DNA from: a virus
Direction: 5' to 3' (one strand)
DNA length: 64,000 nucleotides
Virus record (IMG/VR): IMGVR_UViG_3300012920_000028
Coordinates: 1 to 64,000 of that record
This document shows positions 10,211-62,771 of the stretch, one piece after another (within the stretch, counting starts at the first letter, position 1; the number at the start of each line of letters is the position of its first letter). The notes under the pieces were generated by a model. That model was given only the letters and a program-made list of their open reading frames with translations. It was not told the DNA's origin and did no database searches. The position numbers and the translations under genes are program-made.

Positions 10211-10211
10211 C

Positions 10212-23095: not shown

Positions 23096-24013
23096 TTGAC
23101 CGTGTTCTGTCAACCGTCGTTCGACCTTTCGTCCTTGGAGGATTGTAGCGTTGATTCGGTCGTCACCGACCCGTGCTACGCCGCACCACCGATTGAGGCA
23201 TGGAAAGAGGTGTTCAGGGTCATAAAACCCGGAGGTCATGTCCTCGTTTTCGCGGAGCCCTCAACGTACCATCGCATGGCGGTGAATATCGAGGACGCGG
23301 GGTTTGAAATCCGTGACCAAATCATGTGGATTTACGGTGACGGCTCATTGAAGGACTTCGAAGTCACGTCTTTCCATGAATCGGTCGTGGTGGCGAGGAA
23401 GCCCCTTGAAGGAACGGTCGTTGGGAATGTTCTCCGGCACGGAACCGGGGGAATCAACGTCGACGGATGTCGGGTGGAACACGCCAATGAGGCGGACCTC
23501 GCCGCGAGTCTTGCGAAGAACCCCGGTCGGACCGATACCGTGACCAGCGGCGTGTATGGTGCCGACAGACCACAACAGCGTGTGAATCTCGACGGCCGCT
23601 GGCCAGCGAACGTCATTTTCGACAGGTACGCTGGAACAGAATTGGACTGGCAGACCGGACATCTCGCTGCAGGGAACCGTCCTGCGAAGCGAAATTACGC
23701 GAGTGCGTTCGCGCAGAATAAAAACCAGCAGGGAGCCGAAAACCCGGGACGTGTGGACGAAGGCGGTGGTGGCTCTCGGTATTTCTTCCGCGCCGAGCAC
23801 ACGGGGGAAGAGCGAAAGCATGGCCTCAAGCCCCTTTCCCTATGGTGCTACCTTCTTCGACTCGTCACTCCCGCTGGTGGGGTCGTGCTTGACCCATTCA
23901 ATCACTCACGACACGTGTTCAAAGCAGCCTCTCAGGAAGGATTTTCAGTTGTCGCTACCAGCAATCTTCCGGCGAACCCTCATATACCGGTCATCGTCGA
24001 ACAGCAAGAATAG
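23096..24013 (+). CDS. Degenerate paralogue of the adjacent DNA methyltransferase
   Basis: This is 305 aa from a TTG. It aligns with the next gene across most of its length: FRVIKPGGHVLVFAEPSTYH, then RMAVNIEDAGFEIRDQIMW, then GGINVDGCRVE, then RYFF and VVLDPF. The catalytic DPPY of amino-methyltransferases is DPCY here (~25), and the SAM-binding DPFxGSGT is replaced by DPFNHSRHVF (~265). It also lacks an internal block of about 100 residues. It is therefore probably inactive as an enzyme but kept intact, perhaps as a partner subunit or DNA-binding scaffold for the active paralogue. It could also be an early pseudogene, but the frame has no stops. Confidence 0.75.
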   Translation: MTVFCQPSFDLSSLEDCSVDSVVTDPCYAAPPIEAWKEVFRVIKPGGHVLVFAEPSTYHRMAVNIEDAGFEIRDQIMWIYGDGSLKDFEVTSFHESVVVARKPLEGTVVGNVLRHGTGGINVDGCRVEHANEADLAASLAKNPGRTDTVTSGVYGADRPQQRVNLDGRWPANVIFDRYAGTELDWQTGHLAAGNRPAKRNYASAFAQNKNQQGAENPGRVDEGGGGSRYFFRAEHTGEERKHGLKPLSLWCYLLRLVTPAGGVVLDPFNHSRHVFKAASQEGFSVVATSNLPANPHIPVIVEQQE

Positions 24014-24022
24014 GTGAATGAA

Positions 24023-34800: not shown

Positions 34801-35583
34801 TCATTGGTACGCCTCCTTCATCGCGTCGCTAAAGGCTTCATCAAACATCTTCTCCTCAACTTGTTCTCGGGCATAGAACTCAGCGATTGTTTCCGGATGA
34901 CCGTAAGGCGTGCCGTCGGTCGCCATGCCCTTGATGTAGTCGTCATAGAAGGTGATTTGTGTTCCACGGTTGCGCCCGAAGGAATCAACGAGCCGGGTCA
35001 CGGGGATTCCATCCTTGATGGCCTCAAGTACTGCCTCTTCGTACTTCGCCTCAAGCGGAGTCTTCGGCTTGGCGGGTGGCTTCTTGATGGGAATGAACGA
35101 AACACCTTTCTTCTTCATCTGCCGGAAGAAGCCACGTTCGTTCTCACGCTCCTCTTGCTCCATCCACTCCATGAGCAACTTGTAGAGTTGCAAGGCTTGA
35201 GGGCAGTAGGTTCCAGTCATCATGCGTCCCTTCCCGGGGAGAACACCTGTCCAAGGGGTGAAATGAATGCGTTGCTTGGTGACGGGGTCAATGAGGAACT
35301 CTTGGCGTAGGTCGCCATAGTCCTGATTCGTGCAATCCACGCCCGTCACGACACACTGTTGAGGGCGGCTGTTGAACTTGTAGCCAAAGACCCCAGTCCA
35401 CCTCTTAACGGGCTTCAGCGTCTTTCGCGCAAGACGGATGTTCTCCCTGCGCGCACGCACGGGGTCAGGATGCCTGCTGAAATGGAAATCAATGACCGGA
35501 GTCACCGCATCCCAATCCATGCCTCTATTTTGCGGCATGTTGCCGACCAGTTGCTTCATTCGTTCTTCTTGGTAGTTGCTCAT
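34801..35583 (-). CDS. Virion-module hypothetical protein, 260 aa
   Basis: Has an N-terminal basic segment (RARRENIRLARKTLKPVKRW), a central FNSRPQQCVVTGVDC and HFTPWTGVLPGKGRMM region, and a charged C-terminal helical region (EQVEEKMFDEAFSDAMKEAY). ATG overlaps the GTPase stop by 4 nt. No family was recognised. Confidence 0.6.
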   Translation of the reverse strand: MSNYQEERMKQLVGNMPQNRGMDWDAVTPVIDFHFSRHPDPVRARRENIRLARKTLKPVKRWTGVFGYKFNSRPQQCVVTGVDCTNQDYGDLRQEFLIDPVTKQRIHFTPWTGVLPGKGRMMTGTYCPQALQLYKLLMEWMEQEERENERGFFRQMKKKGVSFIPIKKPPAKPKTPLEAKYEEAVLEAIKDGIPVTRLVDSFGRNRGTQITFYDDYIKGMATDGTPYGHPETIAEFYAREQVEEKMFDEAFSDAMKEAYQ

Positions 35584-36314
35584 AGGTCACTCATCCCTTT
35601 CATGATGGCTTCTTCCACGTTCCAACCGACCGTCGCCGACACCGCGTCCACACGTGTTGGAATTCGCATTTCCTGCAACTGGTAAAGGTGTTCCCGAAAA
35701 GGAAGGAAGATTGGATGTTCGGAAATGAGGCCGCGCTCCCATTGAGAATAGCCCTCCTCGTCAAGCCAAGTATCAGCCTTGTTCGCAAGGACGATGATTC
35801 GATTTGGGCGCCACTTCCTTGCCTTGAAACGGTTGATGAGACCGAGACCTCGCGGCCGCTTCCCCGACGCCAGTGATTCGACGATGTAGCCGAAAGCCAA
35901 TTGGTTCGACGTATCGTTGGGGTCGAGGAGGTGGCGATGGTCTATCATCACAATGAGGGTCCTAATCCGACGCTGGTACATGTCCCTCAACCACATGGGA
36001 AAGTACTCTTGGTGACCGCCGATGTCGCGAGAAATGACCGTCTTCTGAAGACCGTCCGAGCGCACGCGGTGAATGTGCCGCTCCGGCATTTGGTGGTGCT
36101 TTGAGAGGAACTTCTTCTTGTGGTGGGTTCGCTCGTTTTCGCCAAGAGGGCGAATCTTCCCCTCGGTCATCAATTGACGGTCAAGGGTTGACTTCCCGGT
36201 TTCGCTGAATCCATACACCCCAACATTGTGCGTCACGTACGCCCCAGCGGCGTCGAAGAATCGCCAAAAGCCGTGTGCGACGACAATGGCAGTCGTGGCG
36301 AGAGGGTCAACCAT
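35580..36314 (-). CDS. Small GTPase, Ras/Arf-like
   Basis: This 244-aa protein has the ordered GTPase motifs: P-loop GFSETGKST (35-43), G3 as DIGGHQE (97-103), G4 as NKAD (178-181) and G5 as SAT near 228. DxGGxxE followed by a Trp-containing helix resembles Arf/Sar or archaeal Ras-like GTPases more than translation factors. Residues 5-27 (LATTAIVVAHGFWRFFDAAG) could be an amphipathic or membrane-binding segment, as in Arf. It is longer than Ras (~190 aa) because of a His/Lys-rich insert between G1 and G3. It sits among virion membrane proteins, so a role in membrane recruitment or assembly is plausible but inferred. GGTGA precedes the ATG. Confidence 0.8.
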   Translation of the reverse strand: MVDPLATTAIVVAHGFWRFFDAAGAYVTHNVGVYGFSETGKSTLDRQLMTEGKIRPLGENERTHHKKKFLSKHHQMPERHIHRVRSDGLQKTVISRDIGGHQEYFPMWLRDMYQRRIRTLIVMIDHRHLLDPNDTSNQLAFGYIVESLASGKRPRGLGLINRFKARKWRPNRIIVLANKADTWLDEEGYSQWERGLISEHPIFLPFREHLYQLQEMRIPTRVDAVSATVGWNVEEAIMKGMSDL

Positions 36315-37529: not shown

Positions 37530-39068
37530 TCACTCCCCGAACTCGTCAGGCTCCTTCGCAATGATGATGTTGTCGATGCGCAGGAGGAGCGAAGCCGTCG
37601 CTGTTGCGCTCTCAAGCGCGCTCTTCACCACCTTGAGGGGTTCAACCACGTTCTCTTCCGCCATATCCACCACGCCGCCGGTATAGACGTTCAAACCGGC
37701 ATTCTTTGCGCCTTCCGCGTGAGCCTTCCTCAGTTCACGGAGCGTCGCAATTGGCTGAAGTTGTCCACTGTTCTCAGCGAGGGTGAGCGGAATGATTTCG
37801 AGAGCGTCAGCAAAAGCCTCGACCGCGAGGGATTCAAGGCCGCCCACGCTCGCGGCGTAGGTCCGGAGGTGTTGAGCCATTTCGACTTGAGAAGCACCGC
37901 CCCCGGCGAGAACCTTCCCCTCCTTTCGAGCGACGTGCACCACGCCGATAGCGTCGTCCATGGCGCGGCTGATTTCCTCGGCAGTCTGCTGGGTAGGGGC
38001 ACTGACGACGAGAGAAACCGCATTGGCGTTAGGGGTGTCCTTGAGAATGAAGAAGCCACGCTGACCTGCGCTGGCACTCACTTCCTCAATGCTTCCACAC
38101 GTGCCGAGGTCTTCGACCTCAAGGTCTTCGAGACCGGAAACGATGAGAGCACCCGTAGCGTCGGCCACAGCCTCAAGATTGGAAGCAGCGCAGCGACGGC
38201 ACGCAATGATGCCGTGGCGCGCGAACAGTTCCGCAAGGGCTGGGTTGATGTCCTTTGACGCAAGAACCACGCTTGCTCCGAGGCCGAGAATGTGGTCGGC
38301 CATTCCCTGCAAGAGATTGCGCTGGTTCGCACGGAAGGCCTCAGCGTCCTGCGCCGTGTTGAATTGAAGGTTCGTTCCCTTCGCCATTGCCGGAAGGTCG
38401 AGAGCACCGTCCACGAGCGCGATGGAGGCATTCTCAATGTCCGAAGGCATGGCGTTGTGCATCTTCACCTGACCGATGACAATTCCGTTCGGAGCGTAAG
38501 AGTCCGTGACGGGTGAACCGTAGCGAGGAATGATGTTGATTGAGCCCGGGGAAGCATTCTCCGTCGCCTCCACGCACAGGACTGCGAGATGGTCTTTCGA
38601 CTCCTCAGCAGACTTCCCCGTCATGGCGGTCTTCGCCACTTCGAGAAGGTAGTCTTCCGCAGGAAGGGTGAGCGTTTCGGCAACCTCCTGACACTTCTTC
38701 AAGGCCAGATGGTAGCCGCGAACAATGGTCGTCGGGTGGACCTTCTTCGCGATGAGGTCCTCCGCTTGCTTCAGGAGTTCACCTGTGATGACGATTGCTG
38801 ACGTCGTTCCGTCGTAGCACTCCTCTTCCTGCGTGCGCGCGACCTCGACCATCATGTGTGCCGTGGCGTGGGTGAAATTGGTTTCCTTGAGAATGGTGGC
38901 CCCGTCGTTCGTCACTACCGTACGACCGCTCCGGTCAACGAGCATCTTGTCCATTCCCATAGGGCCGAGGGTCGAACGGACCAATTCGGCGACAAACTTG
39001 CCGATTCCGATGTTGACCTCTTGGGCCGTCTGCGTCTTCTGCTGCTTGGCGTCTGTGGCTTGACTCAT
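37530..39068 (-). CDS. thsA: Group II chaperonin (thermosome subunit)
   Basis: This 512-aa ATP-dependent folding chaperonin is archaeal/eukaryal (CCT) type. Hallmarks in order are TLGPMGMDKMLVD, VVTNDGATILKE, the nucleotide-binding YDGTTSAIVITGELL (catalytic Asp kept), an apical domain of normal length, KVLAGGGASQVEMA, and NAGLNVYTGGVVDM near the end. Length is slightly below the usual ~540 aa because the N- and C-terminal tails are short. It is embedded in virion genes, so capsid protein folding is the natural inference. The promoter is a TATA-like CCTTTTATCC centred ~37 nt upstream, leaving a ~10-nt leader. The apical sequence is diverged enough that adaptation to viral substrates is possible. 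Confidence 0.95.
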   Translation of the reverse strand: MSQATDAKQQKTQTAQEVNIGIGKFVAELVRSTLGPMGMDKMLVDRSGRTVVTNDGATILKETNFTHATAHMMVEVARTQEEECYDGTTSAIVITGELLKQAEDLIAKKVHPTTIVRGYHLALKKCQEVAETLTLPAEDYLLEVAKTAMTGKSAEESKDHLAVLCVEATENASPGSINIIPRYGSPVTDSYAPNGIVIGQVKMHNAMPSDIENASIALVDGALDLPAMAKGTNLQFNTAQDAEAFRANQRNLLQGMADHILGLGASVVLASKDINPALAELFARHGIIACRRCAASNLEAVADATGALIVSGLEDLEVEDLGTCGSIEEVSASAGQRGFFILKDTPNANAVSLVVSAPTQQTAEEISRAMDDAIGVVHVARKEGKVLAGGGASQVEMAQHLRTYAASVGGLESLAVEAFADALEIIPLTLAENSGQLQPIATLRELRKAHAEGAKNAGLNVYTGGVVDMAEENVVEPLKVVKSALESATATASLLLRIDNIIIAKEPDEFGE

Positions 39069-49711: not shown

Positions 49712-50215
49712 TCACCCGAGGACGACCCAGTTGTTGGAACCAATGGCGATAGCAGTTGCCCCGTTGTAGGTGCCGAGGGTGAAATCCGAGGCCGCCCCGT
49801 TGATGTTGTTTCCGTTGCGCCCAATGGTGATGTCGCCGCTGGTGACGTTCAACACAGTGTAGTGCTCCCCCGCGGTTGAAGTGGAAGGAAGATTCACAGT
49901 CCCCGAGGACCCCGAATAGATGAGGTATCTTCCCGCGTGAGTTGCTTCAACCAAGGCGAGTGGGTCCGTCGAAGAGGAAACCGTAGGGAGGCGACGCGCG
50001 ACGAAGGATTTCCCAGCGGCAACAGTGACGTCACCCGTAAGGTCAAGCGTGGATTCATCTTGAACAGCCGTCACGATGTCTGCGTTCTCAAGGTTGAGAA
50101 GCGTCTTGACCTCGGCTTCTGTGATTCCGCTTTGGAGGGCAGGCGTACCACTGCTGTCGACCAGCGCTGGTGTATCGCCGCTGCCGCTACCTGAAGGCGG
50201 ATTGAACCGAGGCAT
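49712..50215 (-). CDS. Beta-rich spike/fibre protein, 167 aa
   Basis: Short N-terminal linker, then a beta domain (AGRYLIYSGSSGTVNLPSTS, HYTVLNVTSGDITIGRNG, then ATAIAIGSNNWVVLG) of the type found at the ends of phage tail fibres. Upstream gene of the propeller protein in the same operon. Confidence 0.55.
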   Translation of the reverse strand: MPRFNPPSGSGSGDTPALVDSSGTPALQSGITEAEVKTLLNLENADIVTAVQDESTLDLTGDVTVAAGKSFVARRLPTVSSSTDPLALVEATHAGRYLIYSGSSGTVNLPSTSTAGEHYTVLNVTSGDITIGRNGNNINGAASDFTLGTYNGATAIAIGSNNWVVLG

Positions 50216-50585: not shown

Positions 50586-51629
50586 TCAGAAGAGGTTGAT
50601 GTCCTTGCCGCCGAGACCGAACATCTCGCCGTGGGCACCTGCGTGCATTCCTGCGTGCATTCCAGCGTGCATACCGTCGTGGTAGCCGTGGGTCATGCCG
50701 AACATTGGCTCATCAATCACCGAAGGCGAGTTGCCGAGGAGACCGAAGCCAGCGATGCCGTTGACCGCGGTGAGACCGCCGCCCGAGACCGAGATGCTCG
50801 GGAGGAAGTTCAGACCGGCCGCACGGCCGAGTTGGAGAGCCGCGGGGAGCATGGCCGCGATGGTGAAGGCACCAGCGGTGGCGTTGCTCACGTTGAGGAA
50901 CTGCTTCAGCGCGTAGCCAGCGAAGCCGGCCACGGCGATGCTGCTGACCGCACTGCGCATTGGGGTCGCGGTGAGTCCGATGTCCAAACCGACCTTGCTC
51001 AGGGCGGCTTCGACGTAGGCGGGCAGCGACGCGGAGAGGTAGAGACCGGAGCCGAGGGCGACCATGGTCTCGAACTTCATGATGTGCGAGCGGGTCCAGT
51101 TCAGGCCCTTGCTGAAGAAGCCAGTCATCTTCGAGCGCGTGGTGCGGCGGCGAGAGACGGTGCGGCGCGAAGCGGTGCGGCGGCGAGCAGGGGACTTGCG
51201 GCGGCGGCGCGTAGTCTTGCGGCGAGCAGGGGACTTGCGGCGGCGCGTGGTCTTCTTGCGGCGCGTCGTCTTGCGGCGAGCAGGAGACTTGCGGCGGCGC
51301 GTCGTCTTGCGACGAGCAGGTGCCTTGCGGCGACGGGTCGTCGTCTTGCGACGGGTCGTCTTGCGACGAGCGGGCGCCTTGCGGCGACGGGTCGTCGTCT
51401 TGCGACGCTTAGAGGTCGCCTTGCGCTTCGTCGTCTTGCGACGGGCGGGCGCCTTGCGGCGTCGGGTGGTCGTTTTGCGCCGCGTGGTGCGGCGCGCCGG
51501 CGCCTTGCGGCGCGCGGTCGTGCTACGTCGGGAGACCTTTCGTCGGGCCATGTTCTTCACTTTCCTTTTTGTTGTAGTACGCCTCTTCGAGCCCACGGGG
51601 TTCACGATTACGAGTTCCTCGAGAGCCAT
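50586..51629 (-). CDS. Basic-repeat DNA-binding membrane protein, 347 aa
   Basis: Residues ~25-160 are almost only Arg, Lys, Thr, Ala, Ser and Pro in repeats of about 10-13 residues such as RRKAPARRKTTRRK and RRKSPARRKTT, like histone H1 tails or protamine-like viral proteins. The C-terminal half has several hydrophobic segments (FETMVALGSGLYLSASLP, VAGFAGYALKQFL, AGAFTIAAMLPAALQL). Near the end, HxGM repeats (DGMHAGMHAGMHAGAHGEM) could bind metal. It could condense the genome and link it to an internal membrane. The start is uncertain: GTG 51653, ATG 51629 or ATG 51551 (with GGAAAGTG upstream). Confidence 0.65.
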   Translation of the reverse strand: MALEELVIVNPVGSKRRTTTKRKVKNMARRKVSRRSTTARRKAPARRTTRRKTTTRRRKAPARRKTTKRKATSKRRKTTTRRRKAPARRKTTRRKTTTRRRKAPARRKTTRRRKSPARRKTTRRKKTTRRRKSPARRKTTRRRRKSPARRRTASRRTVSRRRTTRSKMTGFFSKGLNWTRSHIMKFETMVALGSGLYLSASLPAYVEAALSKVGLDIGLTATPMRSAVSSIAVAGFAGYALKQFLNVSNATAGAFTIAAMLPAALQLGRAAGLNFLPSISVSGGGLTAVNGIAGFGLLGNSPSVIDEPMFGMTHGYHDGMHAGMHAGMHAGAHGEMFGLGGKDINLF

Positions 51630-51787
51630 CAGAGACGCCTGAATGCCCTTCACCGACTTCCCGTATATGAAGAAAATGAGGTCCTATGTTGCGCTATATG
51701 ATACGCATACCTCAAATCAAGGGTCCGGTATTCGGAAATCGAGACTGAAGGAACCTTCATACCCGCGTCGTCCGTGCCTTCGGACGG

Positions 51788-52514: not shown

Positions 52515-53203
52515 CTGTTCAGCCGCAGACGCTTGACCGATTTTACGCTACCGCCAGCGTTCCTTGGTTTCTCGTCACCAATCGGCCGACACTTGTTCCA
52601 TGTTCCTGTCCCGTGCGTACTGTAGTACCAGTACTTGTATTCGGGGCTCGCGAAGAAGGGAACGTGTTCAACGTAGTGTTCGAGGTTGCGGCTCTTGAGG
52701 TAGTCGGGGCGGTCGTCAATCCTGAACACTACCTTGTTCTCGGATTGGCTCCATACCGTTTCCGACATCAACTGAAGACGTTGAGTCATTCCGATACCGA
52801 CGATTCCCTTTCCGGCGCCGACGAGCCACAGTTGCTCGATGCCGTCGTTGGTCCCCTTTCGGACGAAGGTCTGGATTTCGTCAATGGCGATGATTCGACG
52901 AATCCGCTTGAAACCCGGCTTATTGGAAACCATGAACACACGTTCGATGACCTTATTCAGCGCCGCTACTCTCTCTTCCTTTCCTACGGGTGGGTGGAAG
53001 ACAATGGAAGGTGTCTTGGAAAGGAGAGCGGCATAGACCTCCATTGGAGTCTTGCACACACGTCCGAGGTCCGTGATTTCTGCCTTGGGGTCCACAAAGA
53101 TTGTGTGAAGGCCGTCCTTCTGAAAACGCTTGAACATCTCGGAGACGAAATACGTCTTGCCGCTGCGGGTCATTCCGAGAACTGCGGTATGTCGCTTCTT
53201 CAT
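52511..53203 (-). CDS. Genome-packaging ATPase (HerA/FtsK, A32-like)
   Basis: This is 230 aa from ATG 53203, which overlaps the upstream TGA (ATGA). Walker A is GMTRSGKT (10-17), Walker B is RIIAIDE (D108, E109), and a sensor-like GIVGIGMTQR follows, then a short C-terminal part. Size and motif spacing fit the small packaging ATPases of membrane-containing icosahedral viruses (PRD1/adenovirus lineage, sphaerolipovirus-like, NCLDV A32). It should translocate DNA into preformed capsids. Together with many membrane proteins it argues for an internal membrane. Confidence 0.85.
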   Translation of the reverse strand: MKKRHTAVLGMTRSGKTYFVSEMFKRFQKDGLHTIFVDPKAEITDLGRVCKTPMEVYAALLSKTPSIVFHPPVGKEERVAALNKVIERVFMVSNKPGFKRIRRIIAIDEIQTFVRKGTNDGIEQLWLVGAGKGIVGIGMTQRLQLMSETVWSQSENKVVFRIDDRPDYLKSRNLEHYVEHVPFFASPEYKYWYYSTHGTGTWNKCRPIGDEKPRNAGGSVKSVKRLRLNR

Positions 53204-53697
53204 GTTCTCATAGAGCGCGTTTGAGACCATGCTACAACACCAGCACCAACGGCGAGAAGACCAAAGAGACGGCTCGGAGGGACGGCCATAAAGGACTCGG
53301 CGTAGGCCGGGAAGTTCTCCTTGAACCGTTGGCGAAGGTTGTTGTTGTCGGTCACCCGAAGCCATGCTACCGGGTTCATGACGTCGGGGTTCACGCCGCC
53401 GGTGTGCTTCAAGCCGAGAGCGTGACCGTATTCATGGGCGAGCAGGTCGAGGTTCCCCTTCGCACCGCTTCGCACCGTAATGGTGTTTCCAATGGTGACC
53501 CCTTGAGGGAAGTAGCCACGGTTCAAGATGTTGTAAGAGGCACGCGCCATGTCCCCTGCGTACCATTCCTGAATCTCTCCACTCGCGTGAATCGCGTTCA
53601 CGTATTGCGACCAATGTGCTTCGCTGAGGGTAGCAATCCGGACACCATCCTCGCCTACCGCGATAACGCGGAAAGAAGAGAACGATTCCGGCGTCAT
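53200..53697 (-). CDS. Metzincin (matrixin-like) metalloprotease with C-terminal anchor, 165 aa
   Basis: Zinc site HEYGHALGLKH (H88, E89, H92, H98), with the Met-turn in VMNPVA (~107), as in matrixins. The C-terminus SRLFGLLAVGAGVVAWSQTR is one membrane helix. No signal peptide or long propeptide is seen, so the enzyme is probably cytoplasmic or virion-membrane bound rather than secreted. It lies between the giant multi-domain gene and the packaging ATPase, with GGTGA before the ATG. Maturation protease or entry factor are both possible. Confidence 0.8.
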   Translation of the reverse strand: MTPESFSSFRVIAVGEDGVRIATLSEAHWSQYVNAIHASGEIQEWYAGDMARASYNILNRGYFPQGVTIGNTITVRSGAKGNLDLLAHEYGHALGLKHTGGVNPDVMNPVAWLRVTDNNNLRQRFKENFPAYAESFMAVPPSRLFGLLAVGAGVVAWSQTRSMRT

Positions 53698-53701
53698 GTG
53701 T

Positions 53702-56700
53702 TCACCACTCGAACATGTTGAGGAACTCGTCCTCGTCTTCCTCCACCCAGTCGTGCCTTGAGGAGTTTTCCTTGATGAGACCCGCTTTGACCGCAAGACT
53801 GTAGTCGCCCATTTTCTTCCCGTCTTTCATGACGGTGTTTCCGAGCGTGACGAAGGAATAGACGCGGCCGGACGCCCATTGGTGCTGCTGAACACCGGGA
53901 CGGTGACCGGTGCGCCACGCCGCCAAACCCTTGTCGTACACCTTCTCAAGAATCGCCTTGTCGACACCTGTCGTCTTCGACATGCGGGTGAGGAAGGAGC
54001 CCTTCCCCTTCAAGGGACCATACAAGCGAGCGAACTTGGTTCGGTACTTGGAAGGCGTGGTTTTCATTCCCCGCGCCGTAGCCTTGATGTCCGATTTCCA
54101 GAATTCGTACGCTTTCGGGTCGTTCACGTCGTACTTGTAGCCTTGGTCAATCTCGTACTCGGCAATCGCCTTCTCGACAGATGTCAGGCCTTTCAGGTAC
54201 TTGGAAGGAATCTTCTTTCCACCGGGAGTACGGGGGTTCGGGCGAGGAAGATTCGACAGTTGCGTAATCGAAATGGTTTGGGCCGTGAGGGCTGAAGGGT
54301 AGGAAACGTCAGAAGGGAACCATGGGTTCGGGCGAGGAAGGTTCTCCTTCATCCAAGCATACGTCTTAGGTGCCTTCTCCTTGAGTTTGGCGCGGCCTTC
54401 GCCGATACCGGGGATGAAATAGACGCGGGAATACAGGGGGGCGCGAAGCCTGATTTCATCGAGGTCCTCCTGCATTTTACGGATGTTCTCGGCGTATTCC
54501 TTGTCTGTGTAGTACGCTCCGGGCTTCGTGTGCGGCGCTTTCTTGGTTCGGAAACCAATGGTGTTCTTCTCGTCGCGGATTTTCGCTTGACCGCCCTTTC
54601 CCTCACGCTTGTCGTTGTCGCCGAAGACGAAGAGGACCTCGGGGTGGTTCCGGACATATGTCGGAGTGATTTTCTTTGGTGGGTTGTCTTTCACTTCGCT
54701 TATGTTTTTCGCAGGTATTGTTTCTGGTGTGGTCCATTCCATACCGTTCAATGTGAGGTCAAGTGTTTCGGGAACCGATATTTCAAGTAAGGCAAAATCC
54801 TCATGGTTGGGCATCTTGGTTTTCCAAAACAATGCTTCTTCTTTTTTTGAAGCAAGGTAAATTCTTGGTTTGAATGATTGGATGTATTCTTCAAACTTCA
54901 TGTCCGGCGCTATCAAGTTTTTTTCTTTAGCAAATTCGTACAATTGGCCTTTCAATGCTCTTGTAAGTGGGCCATGTTGTGGAACAAGGCCATTTTTCTT
55001 GATGCTTGGTAGGTGTTCTTTCAATGTGAGATGGTACAGTTTTTTCGGCATCGGCAACTCTTCACCTCTTACGCTTTTGGCTGGGTTCTTCTTCGGACCC
55101 ATCAACACAGGCACTTTGCCGTACTTGCGCTTCTCCGTCATCCCAATCCACGGAACGTCGGGGCACGGAGGCATTCGGGAGATGTCGTGCTTGCGCGCCC
55201 AGCGCCACGGGTCGTGTCCCCACACCCACAGGCCGAGGAGGCGCCGTGAGACTTGGTTCTGCGTCTTCTGCTCGCGCACGAGGGGGCCTTTCTGGTCAGC
55301 GTTGTAGGGGAACGCGCCGTGGCGCTTCACGAAGCGCACCTGACGCTTGCACCAATCCCAATCGGTTTCTCCGTCGAGTGGGTCATCGGACGGGCCAGTC
55401 CATTCCTTCATGGCCTTCTCATAGTAGTTCTCGATGATGCGTGGCCCGATTTTGATGTAGTCCTTCGGGCCGGTCAGGCCGAGTTTGGCGCGCATTTTGA
55501 GGATGCGACGGCCGCTCACACGCCCACTCTTGATGCCCTGAGCGTCTGCTTCTTCTTTGGAGAGACCGGCCTTCTTCCCGAGGGGAGAATCAAGGAACGC
55601 CTTCAGTTCCTTGTTCTTCATGTTGATGAGATGAACCCACTCCTCGAACCACTCGAAGAGTTCCTTTGGTGGGTTTTCAATTTCCCACGGCTCTTCCCCC
55701 GGTTCCCATTCCAAGTGGTTTTCCATCTGGTGTCTTGTCCATACAGGGTACTTCTTCTTTGGTTCCCACACTCGATAGGGCTTTTGAGCCGGGTCAGACC
55801 ATGGCTTAAGGTTCCCACCACCTGCCGGGGAATAGAAGGAGCGACGGTACTTTTCTCGGGCCTGCTGGTCGAGGAAAAAGAACTCCACCCGTTCGACCTT
55901 CAGGTTCACGTCATCATCAGGGTTGAGTTCTGATTCTGTGGGGCCGAAGGAGAAGTTGTTCCGGAGGGTCGAAATCCAATTGATGTCTTGGAAGGGGAGG
56001 CGTGCTACGATGAGGACTTGGTTGGCGTGAGGGAAAAACTGCGCGACCGAAGTTCGTGTTTGAACGAACATGTCTGCTTTCTTCTTATCGGTGGTCCATG
56101 CACTGCCAAGTCCGTGCGTCTGCCATGACTCTTCGAGTTCTTCGCTCGAAGCGGGAGACCAAATCGCACGGTAGATGGGTATGGAGTCCCTCGAACCATA
56201 CAGCGATTTCCAATGTTCAAACAAGTGTTCGAGGAACCTTTTGCCGGAAGAGCCGGTGTAGCCCCAGCGGCGGAAGTTCCTCTTCATTTCCTTTTTGTTT
56301 TCTCTTTCCACGAAACGCAGCAGACCTTCCAAACCACTTGATGTAAGGACGTCCTTCAATCGGATTCCTTCAGGTGGGTTCCCCATCGGGAGGGCAGAAG
56401 AGTCAAGCAAAGCGGAGAACCTTTCGGCTTGAGCATTTGGAACAAGGACATGTGTCCGGTTCTCAACCGGAGAGCGAATCGTCCCTTCAGGGAGGTAGGA
56501 GTCGTTGAAGTACGAAGGGATGGCGAAAGCACTGTAGTCGCCACTATCCGCCATGTTGTTGAAGGAAATGATGCGGCGGCGTAGTTCCCTGTAATCCCTT
56601 TCAGCATCGGTCTCCGGGGCAAGACCCTGACCAAACGTCGCTTGCCTACCAAGACGTTTAGGCACTTCCTGCACGACTTCAGCGATGGGGACTGCTGGGT

Positions 56701-59392
56701 TCTCAAGGGGGATTTCGTCAATCCGAGAGAGGAAGTTCTTCCGGTAGTTCCCCGTTTCCATGTCGACGAAGAGGTCGAAGTCTTCCTTCGACGCTCGCGC
56801 GATTTGAGCGGGCATCAGGAGGGCGCGCTCCTTCGCTTCCTTCTTGCTCATACCTCCGCGCTCAAGGAGCATGGCTTCGAGAGCCGAAGTGGAACGGTTC
56901 TTCGGTCGGAGGTAAATGGAGAACATGTCGGGGAACAGGTCCTTGTACTTCTTCATCCCGCCAATGTTGACGTCGATGACGTTGATTGGGTATTTGAAAT
57001 CGGCGAATCGGCGGCCATACAGGTGACCGTTCTTCATGCGACGGTATTCGAGGAACTCGTCGTTCTGAATCATTTCCATGAACTTCGCCTTCGACACGAA
57101 GTGCTTGTCCACTCCGTCGCGCTCCTTCGGTCGTGGTGGCCGTGTCGTGTAGGCGAGGACCTCGCCCACTCCGGGGAACTTCTTCTTGAGTAGGCGAATC
57201 GAAGTGGACTTCCCCACGCCTGCTGGCCCGGAAATGCTGATGAGGCGAACGCGCGAAGCCTTCCTCGGATTGACCGCGACCACGGGCACTGCCGCCTGCT
57301 CCGGCTCTTCGAGTTGCACATCCTCGATTTGCTGAAGAGCACGGCCGAGTGTGAGGTAGATGGCGTTCACCGCCTCGCGCCCGAGGTCCATGTTTAGGTT
57401 CGGGAAATCCTTCCGGAACGTGAGGTCGAAGTTGCCCGTTCCGTTCGAGGCGCGCACATTGAGGTCATAGCCGTCGGGGATGACGTCTCCGAGTTCGGGG
57501 GCGTTGGTCGTGTTGAGAATGAGGTAGCCGTTTCCGCTCGTTTTGTTGGTGGGGTACCAGTAGTCCTTCGACGGGTCCACATTGTGTCGAAGGTATGGCT
57601 CGAACGCGGCCTCCATCAAGGCTGCTGAAATGTCTTGGACCCCGTAGTTCCACCTGTATTTGACCGAAGCCACCAAGGGACGCGGGTTCTGCCTCGGCTC
57701 GTTGAGGAAGGCCCGCAACTTCTCGACATGCTGCCTCAGATACCAGTTCTTGAAGTCTGCACCGTTCACTTTCCCGTCATAGTGCCCCGCCGACTTGAAC
57801 TCCTGAGCCATACCCGTCCACATGAACGGGTGGTGCGTGGCGATGTCAGCCATGAGCATGAACAAGGCCGCACCGTAGTATGGGCCGACCTGCGTTCGGA
57901 AGAAGTCCTCGGAGATGTTCCTACGCCCGATGTCCGATTCGAGCATCACCGAAACGATGTCGTCGAGGGGCTCGGGAATGTCGAGGTCGCCGGAGATGAA
58001 GGAGTCCCACATCATCTGAGCGCCTTTCGAGTGGTGGATTTCGTTTCCGCTATCCTTCTGAATGTTCTTCCCCGCGTCATGATAGAGGGCGAGAATGTAG
58101 ACCAAGTCAAGCATCGAGTAGTTCGATGCGATGTTCTCGTTTAGGTAGGCACGCACCTTCTTCCGAAGGTCGGAATCGAACCCGATGTCCTCCCACTTGA
58201 ACATCCGTCCTGAAGGGAATTGCTTCGTTGGCTCAAGGTGGTGACTGAGCCAGAAATAGCAGAACATTGTGTGAGCGTATTCATCTCCGCCATAGTGGAC
58301 GAAGTCGTAGTCCAAACCCGAGAGTTCCTCCAAGGCCGGGTGATAGAGCCGGGAGGGAGGTTGGATTTTGCTGCTGACCGGACCGGGATTGGCCCGAACT
58401 TCGAAAGGGTCCTCGTCCCCCTTCGGGACCTCTTCAGGTGGTGTGTAGTTGGGGTTCACGAACTGCTTGTAGGAAATGGTCGCGATGGAACCGAACTTCT
58501 TGTTGAAGAGGTTCACCATGTGTTGCGTGACGGCGTGGCAGAACTCGACGTCGTCCGAGCCCTTGTGCTTTTTTGCCTCCACTTCGCCCGCTTCGAGCAT
58601 AGCGTCGATATCAGCAATGAACTTCTCCTCGTCAAAGCCGAGGTATTTCTCCACACGGGAGTTCTTCACCTTGAATGTGAAGCGGTCGATACGGTCACGC
58701 ATGACGGTGTAATGCCGCTTCACACCTGTCGAGAAGGAAGCATCGAGGTACCATTGAATATCGTCGGCTGAAGTGAGCGAAGGCTCGTCCTTCGACGGGT
58801 GCGTGTGGTAGAAAGCAACCTCTTCGCCCGGGCGCTTGTTGATTTTGATTTTGGGCATGATGAGCGAGGCTCGGCGATGATAGATGTTCCCGTTCTTCGT
58901 GACCCACCCGTAGGATTCTCCGGTGAAGGAAACGAAAGACCACAACTTGTCGAGGAACGCCTTGTCATCGAGTTTGCTGTAGCGGTGCTTGGTGAAGTGC
59001 TTCTCCGGCTTGTCGATGACCATGCCGTGCATTTCGGCCTTGAACTCGCTCACCGAAGTCGGGTTCTTCAGCACGCCGTCGAAAGACAGGTGTCCCTTAG
59101 CGATAGTGACCATTCCTCCGGGGTTTGAGCGGACGACTGAAACTTCGTCGCACCGGATGAGAACGTGAACCATCTGTGGCTTTCGGTCGCGGTAGGGAAC
59201 GTATCGCCCTTGGTCGAGGAAGTGCTTCATGGCCTCGCGGGCTTCCTTCCTCTTCACTTGGCCGTCGAACATGACGAACCACGTTTGATTCTCGATGTCG
59301 AGAGTAGCCTCTTTGACGTTGAGAGAGCCAAGAGCCGAGCCGCCCCTCGGAAAGTGCGTGTACTTACGCACCTGTCTCGGACTCAGCGTCAT
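53702..59392 (-). CDS. Giant multi-enzyme protein: JAB, HD, guanylate kinase, ART-like, DUF7831-like and DUF5824-like domains
   Basis: This 1896-aa protein joins many enzyme-like domains. (1) ~160-230, JAB/MPN metalloprotease-like (HTHPSKDEPSLTSADD). (2) ~365-560, HD phosphohydrolase (EYAHTMF, LALYHDAGKN, MADIATHH). (3) ~714-895, guanylate kinase (SGPAGVGKSTS, YTTRPPRPKERDG). (4) ~1050-1180, ADP-ribosyltransferase-like (IPIYRAIWSP, GSAWTTDKKKADMF, ESELN). (5) ~1440-1575, a second ART/RNA 2'-phosphotransferase-like domain (KKLYHLTLKEHLPSIKKNGL), in low-GC DNA. (6) ~1575-1690, DUF7831-like (FVFGDNDKREGKGGQAKIRD). (7) ~1725-1870, DUF5824-like (GGKKIPSKYLKGLTSVEKAI). Domains are separated by linkers containing Asn-Pro (VRANPGP, AVNPRKA, LENPAVP, KKNPAKS, DNPPKKI, RPNPRTP). 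It may be a virion-packaged toolkit, or a polyprotein cut by one of the viral proteases. The start overlaps the primase-ligase gene by 29 nt. Confidence 0.8.
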   Translation of the reverse strand: MTLSPRQVRKYTHFPRGGSALGSLNVKEATLDIENQTWFVMFDGQVKRKEAREAMKHFLDQGRYVPYRDRKPQMVHVLIRCDEVSVVRSNPGGMVTIAKGHLSFDGVLKNPTSVSEFKAEMHGMVIDKPEKHFTKHRYSKLDDKAFLDKLWSFVSFTGESYGWVTKNGNIYHRRASLIMPKIKINKRPGEEVAFYHTHPSKDEPSLTSADDIQWYLDASFSTGVKRHYTVMRDRIDRFTFKVKNSRVEKYLGFDEEKFIADIDAMLEAGEVEAKKHKGSDDVEFCHAVTQHMVNLFNKKFGSIATISYKQFVNPNYTPPEEVPKGDEDPFEVRANPGPVSSKIQPPSRLYHPALEELSGLDYDFVHYGGDEYAHTMFCYFWLSHHLEPTKQFPSGRMFKWEDIGFDSDLRKKVRAYLNENIASNYSMLDLVYILALYHDAGKNIQKDSGNEIHHSKGAQMMWDSFISGDLDIPEPLDDIVSVMLESDIGRRNISEDFFRTQVGPYYGAALFMLMADIATHHPFMWTGMAQEFKSAGHYDGKVNGADFKNWYLRQHVEKLRAFLNEPRQNPRPLVASVKYRWNYGVQDISAALMEAAFEPYLRHNVDPSKDYWYPTNKTSGNGYLILNTTNAPELGDVIPDGYDLNVRASNGTGNFDLTFRKDFPNLNMDLGREAVNAIYLTLGRALQQIEDVQLEEPEQAAVPVVAVNPRKASRVRLISISGPAGVGKSTSIRLLKKKFPGVGEVLAYTTRPPRPKERDGVDKHFVSKAKFMEMIQNDEFLEYRRMKNGHLYGRRFADFKYPINVIDVNIGGMKKYKDLFPDMFSIYLRPKNRSTSALEAMLLERGGMSKKEAKERALLMPAQIARASKEDFDLFVDMETGNYRKNFLSRIDEIPLENPAVPIAEVVQEVPKRLGRQATFGQGLAPETDAERDYRELRRRIISFNNMADSGDYSAFAIPSYFNDSYLPEGTIRSPVENRTHVLVPNAQAERFSALLDSSALPMGNPPEGIRLKDVLTSSGLEGLLRFVERENKKEMKRNFRRWGYTGSSGKRFLEHLFEHWKSLYGSRDSIPIYRAIWSPASSEELEESWQTHGLGSAWTTDKKKADMFVQTRTSVAQFFPHANQVLIVARLPFQDINWISTLRNNFSFGPTESELNPDDDVNLKVERVEFFFLDQQAREKYRRSFYSPAGGGNLKPWSDPAQKPYRVWEPKKKYPVWTRHQMENHLEWEPGEEPWEIENPPKELFEWFEEWVHLINMKNKELKAFLDSPLGKKAGLSKEEADAQGIKSGRVSGRRILKMRAKLGLTGPKDYIKIGPRIIENYYEKAMKEWTGPSDDPLDGETDWDWCKRQVRFVKRHGAFPYNADQKGPLVREQKTQNQVSRRLLGLWVWGHDPWRWARKHDISRMPPCPDVPWIGMTEKRKYGKVPVLMGPKKNPAKSVRGEELPMPKKLYHLTLKEHLPSIKKNGLVPQHGPLTRALKGQLYEFAKEKNLIAPDMKFEEYIQSFKPRIYLASKKEEALFWKTKMPNHEDFALLEISVPETLDLTLNGMEWTTPETIPAKNISEVKDNPPKKITPTYVRNHPEVLFVFGDNDKREGKGGQAKIRDEKNTIGFRTKKAPHTKPGAYYTDKEYAENIRKMQEDLDEIRLRAPLYSRVYFIPGIGEGRAKLKEKAPKTYAWMKENLPRPNPWFPSDVSYPSALTAQTISITQLSNLPRPNPRTPGGKKIPSKYLKGLTSVEKAIAEYEIDQGYKYDVNDPKAYEFWKSDIKATARGMKTTPSKYRTKFARLYGPLKGKGSFLTRMSKTTGVDKAILEKVYDKGLAAWRTGHRPGVQQHQWASGRVYSFVTLGNTVMKDGKKMGDYSLAVKAGLIKENSSRHDWVEEDEDEFLNMFEW

Positions 59393-62300
59393 CGTCAGAC
59401 CTCATGAAACGTGCAAGCGGGGACACCGCCTCCGTATCGGGGAGAGCAGCGTCGGAAATGAACTCTCCGCCCGGGTTCTTCTTCGCAAGACGAAGTGCAC
59501 GGGAGTGAATCTCTCGGTCTTTCGAAGCATCGAACGACCTGTCCCTGAAATCATTCTTCATGGACTCGTCCTGACGAACGAACTCACCTGTGTCGAGGTT
59601 TTCTTCAGCCCACCCGAAGTCCCCTCTCGTTTCAGCCGGGCGGCGAACGCGGTAGCCGAGGCGCGGGTCCATGTTCACACCTACCGCGAACTCCGCGTCG
59701 CGTCGTGCTTGGTCATCATCCTGCATGTAGTCCATGAGCAATTGATTGTGATACAAGGTTTCCTCTCTCGCGCCTTTCTCATGCACGACACCGCCGATGT
59801 TCGGGCCTTCCTCGTCAAACACACCGTCTTCGGAACCGACAATGAAACCCGGAATCGAAAGGTAGTACGAAACGCCATGTTTGTCCTTCGGGAAACGCAT
59901 GAAGGCGTCAGGGGCGTAGTGAAGACCCCACTTCCCCGGGCTCAAGACGAGTTGGTTCTCGAACTCGCCCTTGAGGTCCTTGTTCACGTCGACCGGTTGT
60001 CCACCCCTTCCTCGAACACGTCCAGCACGCTGGTCATATCCACTGCTCATCCACGAGGTCGGTGTTCCAACAACCCTCGTTTCACTCTCTGTTCCGGGTT
60101 CAACACCATAGGTCATGCCGGGATAGTCGGGGTGAGAGTATTCGCGAGGGAAACCACCAATCCATCGCGGACCGTTGTTCCAGCCATAGAAGGGGTTCAT
60201 TCGAACACGTGTTAGACCGGACTTTGAAACAAAATGGCGACGGGGTTTCTGATGAGAGTATTTGAACCTCCGAGATTCGGGGTTCTGAATCGCTTCGACT
60301 CCGGTTCTTTTCCCCTTTGGCGCAGCCTTGATGTTGAAACCTCCCGCTTCGCTCACTTGCGTGTGCCGAATGTCGGTTGAATTGAGCGGGTCCTTGTCTT
60401 CACGGACGCGGAGGAGGGTCGGTGTGCCGCCAAGGCCGCGAGTCGTGTAGGGACGTGGCGTGACGCTATATTGGCTCCCTCCACGTTGATATGCGGTGGA
60501 ACCGGGAGCGGCGCGGTCCTGCTTGAAATAGAACGAAGGGCCACGAACCTTCTCAACATCAGACAGGCGCATAAACTGAACTTCCACAACCACCTTCGGC
60601 TCGACGAGGAGGATGTCGGGGTATTGCTCTCGCAATTTCGGTGAGCGAATCACGTGTTCGCCGTCGGCGTATTCCGTGCTCCTCATGGGGCCGATGACCT
60701 GACGGAAAAGCGCGGCACTCTCTTCTTTCGTGAGCCTACCCGGTCCGACATAGCCGACGGGAACATACACGTTCCCAAACTTCATCTTTTTCGCGACGCC
60801 AATCATGACGGTCCCGATTTCTTCCTTCTCGTCTTCGAACGTCTTGGCGGTCGTACCAATCCCCATGATAACGACGTCAAGCGTGTACTTGCGCTTCACC
60901 TTGTAGGTCTTCCCGTCCACGATGAGCACGAGTCCCTCGTGGCCGCGCGTCTTCACCTCAGACTCCCACTTTGCCTTGATGACCGGGTAGTGGTCGTCCA
61001 TCAGAATGAGAGGGTCAACACACCGGATGCGGTCGCCGTCAAGGTCGGCCACCTTCGCGATGCGCTCGTCAAAGGAAAGGTCCTGAACCTTCACGCCGTC
61101 CACAGAATAGACGTCGGTGATGACGAACTTCAGTTTGGAGAAGTCCTCGGGCGAGGGGTTGTCTTTCCGCAAGAAGCCGACGGCCGACGGTCCGAGAGGG
61201 ACGCCAACGTCGTCCAGAAGAATGGACTCACCGAGAACAGTCAGTTCATCGAAGCCGAGACGCGCGCACATCTCTTCGAAATCGCGCGTCAGGTGGTTGT
61301 CCCACCCGAAATGTCCGCCCTTCCCCTGCAGCATGATTGTGCGCTGAAGGTTGATTCCTGAGTCAAGACGTTCGCCGTTGATTCTGAAGCCACCCCGCTT
61401 GTTGAAGGAGAGCATCCCAAGTTGTCCGTCGTACTTCGTCATGACGGCGACCTTCTTTGCGTCCTCAAGCACGGGGCCGAGGTCGCGGAACGTCTTCTCC
61501 TTGAACCGCTTCTTCCACTTCTCAAGGAACGAAACGAACTCGTGGCCCTTGTCTTTGGCGGTGACGCACGGTGGCGCCGCCCGGGTGTCGCTGAATCCCG
61601 CGCCAATGCCGGCGCTCACGAACCACCTATCCACCACACCTTGCAAGTGCTCGAACCGCTCAATGACGTTCATGGGGTGTGCGGACATTGGATTGAAGTT
61701 CTTCAGGTCGCTGATTGATACGGGGATTCGACACAGGCCGGTTGAGCCTTCAAGGTCGTTCATCTTGAAGTGCATTCCGAAGAACATACCCGTAGTCTGA
61801 TTCTGGCCGAAAAGGCGGTCGTCAAGGACTGGAAGCATCTCGACCATGCCCTGCTCTCGGTCGTAGGTCCAATGCTTCTTGACTCCCCTCAAGAGGTTGT
61901 TCTTGCAGTATTCCTTCATGGCCTGCATGGTTTCGAAGCCGAAGCCGTTCACGTTCAGCCAGATTTGGAACGAGCGCCCGGTGAACTGAATGAGAATGTC
62001 GTGTTTCTTCGACACGTGTTTCGCAATCGTGTGGATGTGTTCGAGGTAGTCCTCAAACGCCGCCCCTGAAACATTGTCGAAATCGAGGACGGCCATCTTC
62101 GGGTAGCCTTCGGGTGAGGGTCGGAACTGGATGCCCCGAATCGCACGGTTGGTTCCTCCACTCACGGTGATTTCAGAACCCGTGGTCTCCGCGAAGGTCT
62201 CGAACTTGGCCGCGGACATGAAGCGTTGAACGTCGGCCTCGCTCTTGATTCGGTACATCTGACTCGTCGTGACGCCGTCTCCGCGACTACGGCTGTACTC

Positions 62301-62771
62301 CACCGTTTGAATCGGGTGGTGCATGGTCTTCCTCAAACAGAACGGGAGGAACACTCGGTTGTATTCCCCCACGAAGGTCTTGATGAGTTCGTGTTGCTTC
62401 TTCGCCTCCGGCGTATCGGAAAGGTCCGGAGCGGTTGGGAAGAAGCCGAGCGTGAGAGAGAAGCCACCGTGCACCTTGGCGTAGGCGTCGCGAAGGATTG
62501 GTCGGAGGACTTCCATCTGTTGCTTCGTCGTGAGGTTCACGTCGCGGCGAAAGAGCGGGTCTCCGGTGCTTGGGTGGGTCCAATCCGCGGCTTTCAGGGG
62601 AGGGGTGTTGTTGTCGAACGCCTTCGTCCCCATCTGAAACATCTTTCGTTGTCCGAGGAACTTCACGAGGAACTCTTCCATGTCGGACTCCGTGACGCCA
62701 AACCCGGCCGAAGTCACGTAATTGGTGTACCTCCCCCATTGTTCGAGAACACCGTCATAGGGAGAAATCAT
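59364..62771 (-). CDS. Primase (AEP)-ATP-dependent DNA ligase fusion, 1135 aa
   Basis: A primase-polymerase (archaeo-eukaryotic) domain at ~200-400 has YPKMAVLDFDN (DxD), QFTGRSFQIWLNV (Gln where His is usual) and STGLCRIPVSIS (basic motif). It is followed by a complete ATP-dependent ligase: motif I TKYDGQLG (Lys at ~446), GEGLVL-type motif IV as HEGLVLIVDG, motif V YKVKRKYTLDVV (~615-635), and the OB fold ending LRVREDKDP (motif VI). The last ~380 residues are unassigned, with Asn-Pro linkers (RMNPFYG, KKNPGGE). Residues 1-200 are also unassigned. Primer synthesis and nick sealing on one chain would suit lagging-strand work; LigD in bacterial end joining has a similar domain pairing. Confidence 0.85.
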   Translation of the reverse strand: MISPYDGVLEQWGRYTNYVTSAGFGVTESDMEEFLVKFLGQRKMFQMGTKAFDNNTPPLKAADWTHPSTGDPLFRRDVNLTTKQQMEVLRPILRDAYAKVHGGFSLTLGFFPTAPDLSDTPEAKKQHELIKTFVGEYNRVFLPFCLRKTMHHPIQTVEYSRSRGDGVTTSQMYRIKSEADVQRFMSAAKFETFAETTGSEITVSGGTNRAIRGIQFRPSPEGYPKMAVLDFDNVSGAAFEDYLEHIHTIAKHVSKKHDILIQFTGRSFQIWLNVNGFGFETMQAMKEYCKNNLLRGVKKHWTYDREQGMVEMLPVLDDRLFGQNQTTGMFFGMHFKMNDLEGSTGLCRIPVSISDLKNFNPMSAHPMNVIERFEHLQGVVDRWFVSAGIGAGFSDTRAAPPCVTAKDKGHEFVSFLEKWKKRFKEKTFRDLGPVLEDAKKVAVMTKYDGQLGMLSFNKRGGFRINGERLDSGINLQRTIMLQGKGGHFGWDNHLTRDFEEMCARLGFDELTVLGESILLDDVGVPLGPSAVGFLRKDNPSPEDFSKLKFVITDVYSVDGVKVQDLSFDERIAKVADLDGDRIRCVDPLILMDDHYPVIKAKWESEVKTRGHEGLVLIVDGKTYKVKRKYTLDVVIMGIGTTAKTFEDEKEEIGTVMIGVAKKMKFGNVYVPVGYVGPGRLTKEESAALFRQVIGPMRSTEYADGEHVIRSPKLREQYPDILLVEPKVVVEVQFMRLSDVEKVRGPSFYFKQDRAAPGSTAYQRGGSQYSVTPRPYTTRGLGGTPTLLRVREDKDPLNSTDIRHTQVSEAGGFNIKAAPKGKRTGVEAIQNPESRRFKYSHQKPRRHFVSKSGLTRVRMNPFYGWNNGPRWIGGFPREYSHPDYPGMTYGVEPGTESETRVVGTPTSWMSSGYDQRAGRVRGRGGQPVDVNKDLKGEFENQLVLSPGKWGLHYAPDAFMRFPKDKHGVSYYLSIPGFIVGSEDGVFDEEGPNIGGVVHEKGAREETLYHNQLLMDYMQDDDQARRDAEFAVGVNMDPRLGYRVRRPAETRGDFGWAEENLDTGEFVRQDESMKNDFRDRSFDASKDREIHSRALRLAKKNPGGEFISDAALPDTEAVSPLARFMRSDDDAESETGA

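What the first reader, a model, noticed from the sequence alone, without database searches (positions are those of the whole stretch)
53702..59392. 1896-aa protein joining at least seven enzyme-like domains
JAB protease, HD hydrolase, guanylate kinase, two ADP-ribosyltransferase-like folds, a DUF7831-like and a DUF5824-like domain in one chain is a very unusual fusion. Several of these (ART, HD, kinase) act on nucleotides or modify host proteins, so it may be a multi-purpose host-takeover or anti-defence protein, possibly carried in the virion. Equally it could be a polyprotein.
Basis: partly seen in the sequence, partly recalled or inferred. Interest (0 to 1): 0.87.

Follow-up and report, generated by a model that had tools for sequence, protein, structure and literature searches.

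The report
Cassette-built viral multi-enzyme protein, NP-punctuated
A virus that probably infects archaea makes one giant protein from about ten unrelated enzyme-like modules, joined at a recurring Asn-Pro (NP) mark; modules have been swapped between related viruses at these marks, so it looks like an exchangeable tool-kit for taking over the host, perhaps cut into single tools.

Summary
The 1896-aa ORF is real: 53702-59392 (-), ATG start, no internal stop. A related virus (G001, IMGVR_UViG_3300020601_000007) carries a 2955-aa homologue, so it is not an assembly fusion. Guanylate kinase, DUF7831, DUF5824 and HD are supported. JAB rests on a JAMM motif only; the two ART-like parts are weak. AlphaFold models were useless (pLDDT 33 and 38).

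New here: the modules are joined at Asn-Pro (NP) dipeptides. Of 249 dipeptides tested, NP sits nearest the edges of segments homologous between the two viruses (14 of 22 edges within 5 residues, 2.1 expected). Its Asn is conserved 9/10, other Asn 16/53. In G001 kinase-like, Nudix, glutaredoxin and other modules sit between NP marks. One ART-like module here (GC3 0.42, neighbours 0.71-0.78) lies exactly between two NPs, and a 30-aa cassette has moved and is bracketed by 21-nt direct repeats.

Best filing: a 'polyvalent protein' (Iyer 2017) in a virus with archaeal-type genes, a variant with no internal zincin; a metzincin is encoded next door. Module shuffling at NP joints is shown; virion delivery and cleavage at NP are inferred.

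The parts
53702..59392 (-). whole ORF, 1896 aa, modular multi-enzyme protein
   Evidence: homologue P0002 (2955 aa) in G001
59126..59392 (-). N-terminal module, residues 1-89, conserved in G001, no family match
   Evidence: alignment A3
58391..59125 (-). JAB/JAMM-like module, residues 90-334, between NP90 and NP335
   Evidence: 63% identical to G001; JAMM-like motif only; no HMM support
58760..58807 (-). JAMM-like motif HTHPSKDEPSLTSADD, residues 196-211
   Evidence: only match to H.HP...S..D among the ORFs of both genomes
57689..58390 (-). HD-domain module, residues 335-568
   Evidence: PF01966 20.7 bits here, 26.1 bits (cut-off 22) in G001
57272..57688 (-). unassigned module, residues 569-707
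   Evidence: conserved in G001
56702..57271 (-). guanylate kinase module, residues 708-897, with P-loop GPAGVGKST
   Evidence: PF00625 1.1e-19; PDB guanylate kinases down to 3e-23
56381..56701 (-). poorly conserved module, residues 898-1004
   Evidence: low similarity to G001, GC3 0.58
55676..56380 (-). ART-like module 1 (weak), residues 1005-1239
   Evidence: no significant family
55088..55675 (-). most conserved module, residues 1240-1435; weak DUF3140 match
   Evidence: 82% identical to G001; DUF3140 0.0011, below cut-off
54686..55087 (-). ART-like cassette 2, residues 1436-1569, absent at this site in G001; foreign base composition
   Evidence: GC3 0.42 against 0.78 and 0.71 in the neighbouring segments; lowest-GC3 block 1437-1579; weak ART motifs
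54329..54685 (-). DUF7831 module, residues 1570-1688; free-standing in tailed phages
   Evidence: PF25176 1.5e-32; stand-alone phage genes
54239..54328 (-). 30-aa cassette NPWFPSD...TISITQLSN, residues 1689-1718; in G001 it lies before glutaredoxin-DUF7831 instead of after DUF7831
   Evidence: 82% identical to P0002 2096-2123, order permuted
53705..54238 (-). DUF5824 module, residues 1719-1896
   Evidence: PF19141 2.7e-22
54234..54254 (.). direct repeat copy 1 at joint NP1719 (21 nt)
   Evidence: 95% identical to copy at 54324
54324..54344 (.). direct repeat copy 2 at joint NP1689
54668..54688 (.). direct repeat at joint NP1570 (NPPKK)
   Evidence: 86% identical over 21 nt to 55658-55678; 18 nt identical to G001 joint 1581
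55658..55678 (.). direct repeat at joint NP1240 (NPPKE)
53200..53697 (-). metzincin-type metallopeptidase, 165 aa, HEYGHALGLKH plus Met-turn DVMNP, hydrophobic C-terminal stretch; candidate processing enzyme
   Evidence: only HExxHxxGxxH ORF found in either genome
52511..53230 (-). HerA/FtsK-type packaging ATPase (context)
   Evidence: PF01935 2.3e-6, phrog_2666 2.5e-18, 78% identical in G001
59364..62771 (-). neighbouring 1135-aa protein, ATP-dependent DNA ligase-like domain, NP-rich C-terminal part
   Evidence: NHEJ ligase 4.7e-9; NP 5 versus 1.9 expected, G001 homologue 9 versus 2.3

Best explanation
The ORF is a large polyvalent-type protein of a virus with archaeal-type genes: a string of about ten modules (JAMM-like, HD, guanylate kinase, ART-like, DUF7831, DUF5824 and others) joined by short linkers that carry an Asn-Pro mark. 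The NP joints are the points where modules are gained, lost and moved between related viruses (shown by comparison). I infer that the chain is made with the packaging and virion proteins, enters the host with the DNA, and acts early on host nucleotides, NAD/ADP-ribose chemistry and proteins. I also infer, less firmly, that it is cut at or beside the NP joints, by the neighbouring metzincin or by its own JAMM-like domain, to free the single enzymes. My estimates: NP-marked exchangeable modules 0.95; polyvalent effector class 0.65; virion delivery 0.5; cleavage at NP 0.35-0.4.
For: Intact fused homologue in a second virus. NP is the top of 249 dipeptides for closeness to edges of homologous segments in four proteins: 14 of 22 edges within 5 residues, 2.1 expected; rotation test p 0.0016 and 0.0022 for the two large proteins. 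Asn of NP conserved 9/10 versus 16/53 for other Asn, p 6e-4. The enrichment is confined to the gene cluster around this ORF: ratio 2.2 and 2.6 there, 1.0 and 1.1 elsewhere in the same two genomes. Synonymous codons vary at conserved NPs, so the amino acids are kept. Cassette exchange: ART-like cassette with GC3 0.42 lies exactly between NP1436 and NP1570; the 30-aa cassette is permuted and bracketed by 21-nt repeats; G001 has extra Nudix (1.2e-13) and glutaredoxin (6.4e-10) between joints. DUF7831 is a free-standing gene in phages. Context: packaging ATPase, histone-like basic protein and a metzincin downstream in both genomes. Class precedent: polyvalent proteins, zincin processing, virion delivery (PMC5512222).
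Against: No proteomics and no detected virion-targeting signal. Background: NP is already 1.55-fold over composition in 324 control viral-contig ORFs, and 27 of 169 long control ORFs have a ratio of at least 2 with 5 or more NPs, so the count alone is weak; position and conservation carry the argument. The 22 edges include pairs from the two homologues, so they are not independent. One G001 joint (glutaredoxin to DUF7831) has no NP. No consensus around NP beyond the dipeptide is visible, which is little for a protease. The metzincin has a hydrophobic C-terminal stretch and could instead act on the host envelope. Only two genomes are available.
Confidence: 0.55

Rival explanations
1. Uncut multi-enzyme chain: the NP linkers are only rigid spacers or turns, and the whole 1896-aa protein works as one tethered factory in the virion or the cell, like the N4 virion RNA polymerase, which is packaged unprocessed.
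For: NP is a common linker/turn dipeptide (control ratio 1.55); N4 virion RNAP is packaged uncleaved (PMC5512222); one module pair in G001 is fused without NP.
Against: Asn of NP is conserved far more than other Asn while the linkers around it diverge; NP far exceeds other proline dipeptides at segment edges (NP 14/22, PP 7/22, LP 4/22).
Confidence: 0.35
2. NP is a by-product of recombination: the joints share short DNA such as AACCCACCAAAG, through which cassettes are swapped, and the encoded NP has no role of its own.
For: Near-identical direct repeats of 21 nt at joints 1689/1719 and 1240/1570; 18 nt identical between G000 joint 1570 and the non-orthologous G001 joint 1581.
Against: Most joints share no DNA beyond the two codons, and conserved NPs use different synonymous codons in the two viruses, so the peptide is selected.
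Confidence: 0.2
3. Chance or assembly fusion of neighbouring viral genes into one ORF.
For: Some modules occur as separate genes in phages (DUF7831).
Against: Intact homologue of 2955 aa in an independent contig with the same core order; selection pattern in codons.
Confidence: 0.02

Closest known systems
Polyvalent proteins of phages and conjugative elements (Iyer, Burroughs, Anand, de Souza, Aravind 2017, PMC5512222)
   Same: One polypeptide with many enzymatic domains of disparate activity; viral; among packaging/virion-type genes; variable domain content between relatives; zincin peptidase associated; ART and protein-kinase domains, and JAB (RadC) in conjugative elements, are part of the described repertoire.
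   Different: The virus carries archaeal-type RNAP and chaperonin genes, while the paper notes a paucity in archaea and that almost all examples above 1000 aa come from bacteria; the zincin is a separate neighbouring gene; modules meet at NP marks, which I did not find described (term searches of that paper); the virus has a HerA/FtsK-type packaging ATPase, whereas most phages with such proteins have a portal-terminase system.
N4 virion RNA polymerase and phage P1 DdrB/DarA (as discussed in PMC5512222)
   Same: Large phage proteins that travel with the DNA; P1 DdrB and DarA are proteolytically processed.
   Different: No single-subunit RNAP or ParB domain here; packaging and processing untested.
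FlhB/YscU/HrcU self-cleavage at N-PTH (PMC3708937, PMC3052322 found; mechanism from own knowledge)
   Same: Precedent for backbone cleavage between Asn and Pro.
   Different: Needs the FlhB fold; no NPTH in this protein; only a chemical analogy.
2A translational-skipping peptides (NPG/P; own knowledge)
   Same: Joint 335 reads EVRANPGP, close to the DxExNPGP consensus.
   Different: Only 1 of 14 NPs has NPGP; not conserved in G001 (ANPLP); not known to work in prokaryotes.

Membership tests
polyvalent protein (Iyer 2017) | 2-15 domains of unrelated biochemical activity in one chain | tested here: met
   GK, HD, DUF7831, DUF5824 supported, others weak; G001 adds Nudix, glutaredoxin
polyvalent protein (Iyer 2017) | encoded by a phage, plasmid or conjugative element, in the phage type near virion genes | tested here: met
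   virus record; packaging ATPase, histone-like basic protein and other minus-strand genes follow directly
polyvalent protein (Iyer 2017) | zincin-like metallopeptidase domain in the chain (about 36% of members) | tested here: not met
   no HExxH in either large protein; a metzincin is the neighbouring gene. Not obligatory for the class
polyvalent protein (Iyer 2017) | variable domain content between relatives (mosaicism) | tested here: met
polyvalent protein (Iyer 2017) | packaged in the virion and injected with the DNA | not testable with these tools
   needs virion proteomics
viral polyprotein | cleavage into mature products | not testable with these tools
   only indirect: NP joints
JAB/JAMM metalloprotease | JAMM motif H-x-H-P-x(n)-S-x-x-D | tested here: met
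   HTHPSKDEPSLTSADD in both viruses
JAB/JAMM metalloprotease | sequence similarity to the family | tested here: not met
   Prok-JAB, Pfam and PDB searches silent
HD superfamily | match to PF01966 | tested here: met
   26.1 bits in G001 homologue (cut-off 22), 20.7 here
guanylate kinase | match to PF00625 with P-loop | tested here: met
ADP-ribosyltransferase | match to an ART family or fold | tested here: inconclusive
   weak N-terminal matches only; folds not predictable
metzincin peptidase (neighbouring gene) | HExxHxxGxxH and Met-turn | tested here: met
   HEYGHALGLKH...DVMNP, matrixin 5.5e-4, below its cut-off

The most novel reading that the evidence does not exclude
An archaeal virus lineage builds punctuated polyproteins: Asn-Pro is both the processing signal and the plug at which effector cassettes are exchanged, read by a dedicated small metzincin (or by self-cleavage), giving an open-ended set of early host-control enzymes.
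Probability: 0.33. Interest if true: 0.85.

Novelty: new variant of a known kind. Interest (0 to 1): 0.66.

Why it matters
Polyvalent proteins were said to be scarce in archaea and almost absent above 1000 aa there (PMC5512222). Here are 1896- and 2955-aa examples in a virus lineage with archaeal-type RNA polymerase and chaperonin genes. The NP punctuation gives a simple, testable rule for where such chains are cut or recombined, and a way to find new effector cassettes: read what lies between two NP marks in this lineage.

Tried and rejected
Eight viral-contig scans with the polyprotein, the packaging ATPase, module alignments, RNAP, the GTPase-like protein and a NADFDGDAM pattern found only G001 as a close relative. 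The genome-contig scan returned only a bacterial guanylate kinase. AlphaFold on two-row alignments failed, so no fold search was run. A macrodomain relation of DUF7831, suspected from its FGDN...GGQA...GxGTGLA pattern, got no support from the PDB. A JAB hit in a Cronobacter phage lay antisense to a helicase gene and is chance. Internal translation starts at the joints as an alternative to cleavage: Shine-Dalgarno plus start sites inside both genes do not coincide with the joints. N-terminal NP tags on other virion proteins: suggestive (31731-34013, 49712-50215, 50586-51653) but not enriched clearly enough to claim. NP count alone as evidence: rejected because controls show a 1.55 ratio. Papers on DUF7831/DUF5824 or NP-cleaved phage polyproteins: none found. 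PADLOC gave nothing for the window protein.

Full report
THE OBSERVATION. The ORF at 53702-59392 on the minus strand is 1896 codons with an ATG start and no stop. The window is part of a 72,804-base virus record. Pfam confirms guanylate kinase (716-877), DUF7831 (1574-1683) and DUF5824 (1729-1852). HD is near threshold here and above it in the relative. A JAMM motif is present but no JAB model rings. ART assignments are weak. Both AlphaFold jobs, with two-row alignments, gave unusable models.

A RELATIVE SETTLES THAT IT IS REAL. The packaging ATPase downstream led to one relative, IMGVR_UViG_3300020601_000007 (G001, 110 kb). At the same place it has a single ORF of 2955 aa. BLASTP aligns residues 1-989 (46%), 1004-1433 (55%), 1572-1686 (70%), 1687-1714 (82%) and 1719-1872 (62%). 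Between these shared blocks G001 carries further domains: Nudix 1.2e-13 and glutaredoxin 6.4e-10 by Pfam, a protein-kinase-like stretch by eye (1581-1952, no Pfam support) and another ART-like stretch (2587-2792, weak). A fusion artefact is excluded.

THE NP MARK. P0001 has 14 Asn-Pro dipeptides (5.6 expected from composition), P0002 22 (7.7 expected). Most stand at domain boundaries: 90, 335, 569, 708, 898, 1005, 1240, 1436, 1570, 1689, 1719. The reverse dipeptide PN shows no excess (6 versus 5.6, 8 versus 7.7). Count alone proves little: 324 long control ORFs from other viral contigs show a general ratio of 1.55. Three further facts make the case. First, in the two genomes the excess is confined to the cluster of large proteins around this ORF (2.2 and 2.6) and absent elsewhere (1.0 and 1.1). 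Second, the Asn of NP is conserved between the viruses in 9 of 10 cases against 16 of 53 for other Asn (p 6e-4), while flanking linkers diverge. Third, NP ranks first of 249 dipeptides for closeness to the edges of homologous segments in this protein, its homologue and a second pair of modular proteins (66910-70491 and its G001 counterpart): 14 of 22 edges within five residues, 2.1 expected. The edges are partly paired between homologues, so the nominal p of 7e-10 is too small; the rotation test for the two large proteins singly gave 0.0016 and 0.0022.

CASSETTE EXCHANGE. The module between NP1436 and NP1570 has GC3 0.42, while its neighbours have 0.78 and 0.71; the lowest-GC3 block of the whole gene, found without reference to NP, is 1437-1579. 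It is absent at this site in G001, so it is probably a recent arrival that fills exactly one NP-to-NP interval. The 30-aa piece NPWFPSD...TISITQLSN follows DUF7831 here but precedes glutaredoxin-DUF7831 in G001; here it is bracketed by 21-nt direct repeats with 95% identity. Joints 1240 and 1570 share another 21-nt repeat (86%), and joint 1570 shares 18 identical bases with a different joint of G001. Most other conserved NPs use different codons in the two viruses, so the dipeptide itself is kept by selection.

SURROUNDINGS. Upstream lies a 1135-aa ligase-domain protein, also NP-rich. Downstream, a few bases after the stop, starts a 165-aa metzincin with HEYGHALGLKH, a Met-turn and a hydrophobic C-terminal stretch. 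It and its G001 homologue are the only HExxHxxGxxH ORFs found in the two genomes; in G001 two small ORFs lie between it and the large gene. Then follow the HerA/FtsK-type ATPase, an N-formylglutamate-amidohydrolase-like ORF (weak) and a lysine/arginine-rich, histone-like protein. The virus also encodes an RNA polymerase largest subunit closest in the PDB to archaeal Rpo1N and a group II chaperonin closest to archaeal ones, so an archaeal host is the best guess; it is not proven.

WHAT IT IS. The literature search led to the class 'polyvalent proteins' (PMC5512222): large chains with 2-15 unrelated domains in phages and conjugative elements, predicted to enter the host with the DNA and often processed by zincin peptidases. 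The paper states that they are scarce in archaea and that almost all above 1000 aa come from bacteria. Our protein meets the architectural, contextual and mosaic features; it lacks an internal zincin (not obligatory) and has one next door. I file it there as a new variant.

HOW IT PROBABLY WORKS. Shown: a modular chain, NP joints, cassette exchange at the joints, selection for the NP itself. Inferred from the class: co-packaging and early action in the host. Inferred from the NP pattern and the neighbouring metzincin: cleavage into units. Alternatives are an uncut chain with NP turns as spacers, or NP as a residue of recombination. I give 0.35-0.4 to cleavage.

Noticed in passing
10164-14990 (+): 1608-aa RNA polymerase largest subunit (A' and A'' parts fused, Rpb1 domains 1-5), closest in the PDB to archaeal Rpo1N; homologue in G001. 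No Rpb2/RpoB partner was found in either record by PF00562. To my knowledge unusual for an archaeal virus.
   Followed up: partly
37530-39068 (-): Group II (archaeal-type) chaperonin, 78% identical in G001.
   Followed up: partly
35580-36314 (-): 244-aa GTPase-like protein (GFSETGKST, DIGGH, NKAD motifs), 83% identical between the two viruses, among the most conserved proteins of the pair.
   Followed up: partly
50586-51653 (-): 355-aa very basic repeat protein (ARRKTT/RRRKAPARRKTT, histone H1- or protamine-like) whose N-terminus has an ELVIVNP string conserved in G001, again an NP before the basic part.
   Followed up: no
66910-70491 (-) of the record, read from L002: 1193-aa protein sharing only three separate segments with an 829-aa G001 protein, with NP near some of the segment edges: the same modular habit as the ORF under study.
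   Followed up: partly
23096-24013 and 24014-25423 (+): Two adjacent ORFs, each matching the same DNA methyltransferase families.
   Followed up: no
59364-62771 (-): 1135-aa protein with an ATP-dependent (NHEJ-type) ligase domain; its N-terminal part may be a LigD-like primase (by eye only, no family match).
   Followed up: no
19691-20584 (-): Serine recombinase (resolvase plus recombinase domains), conserved in G001.
   Followed up: no
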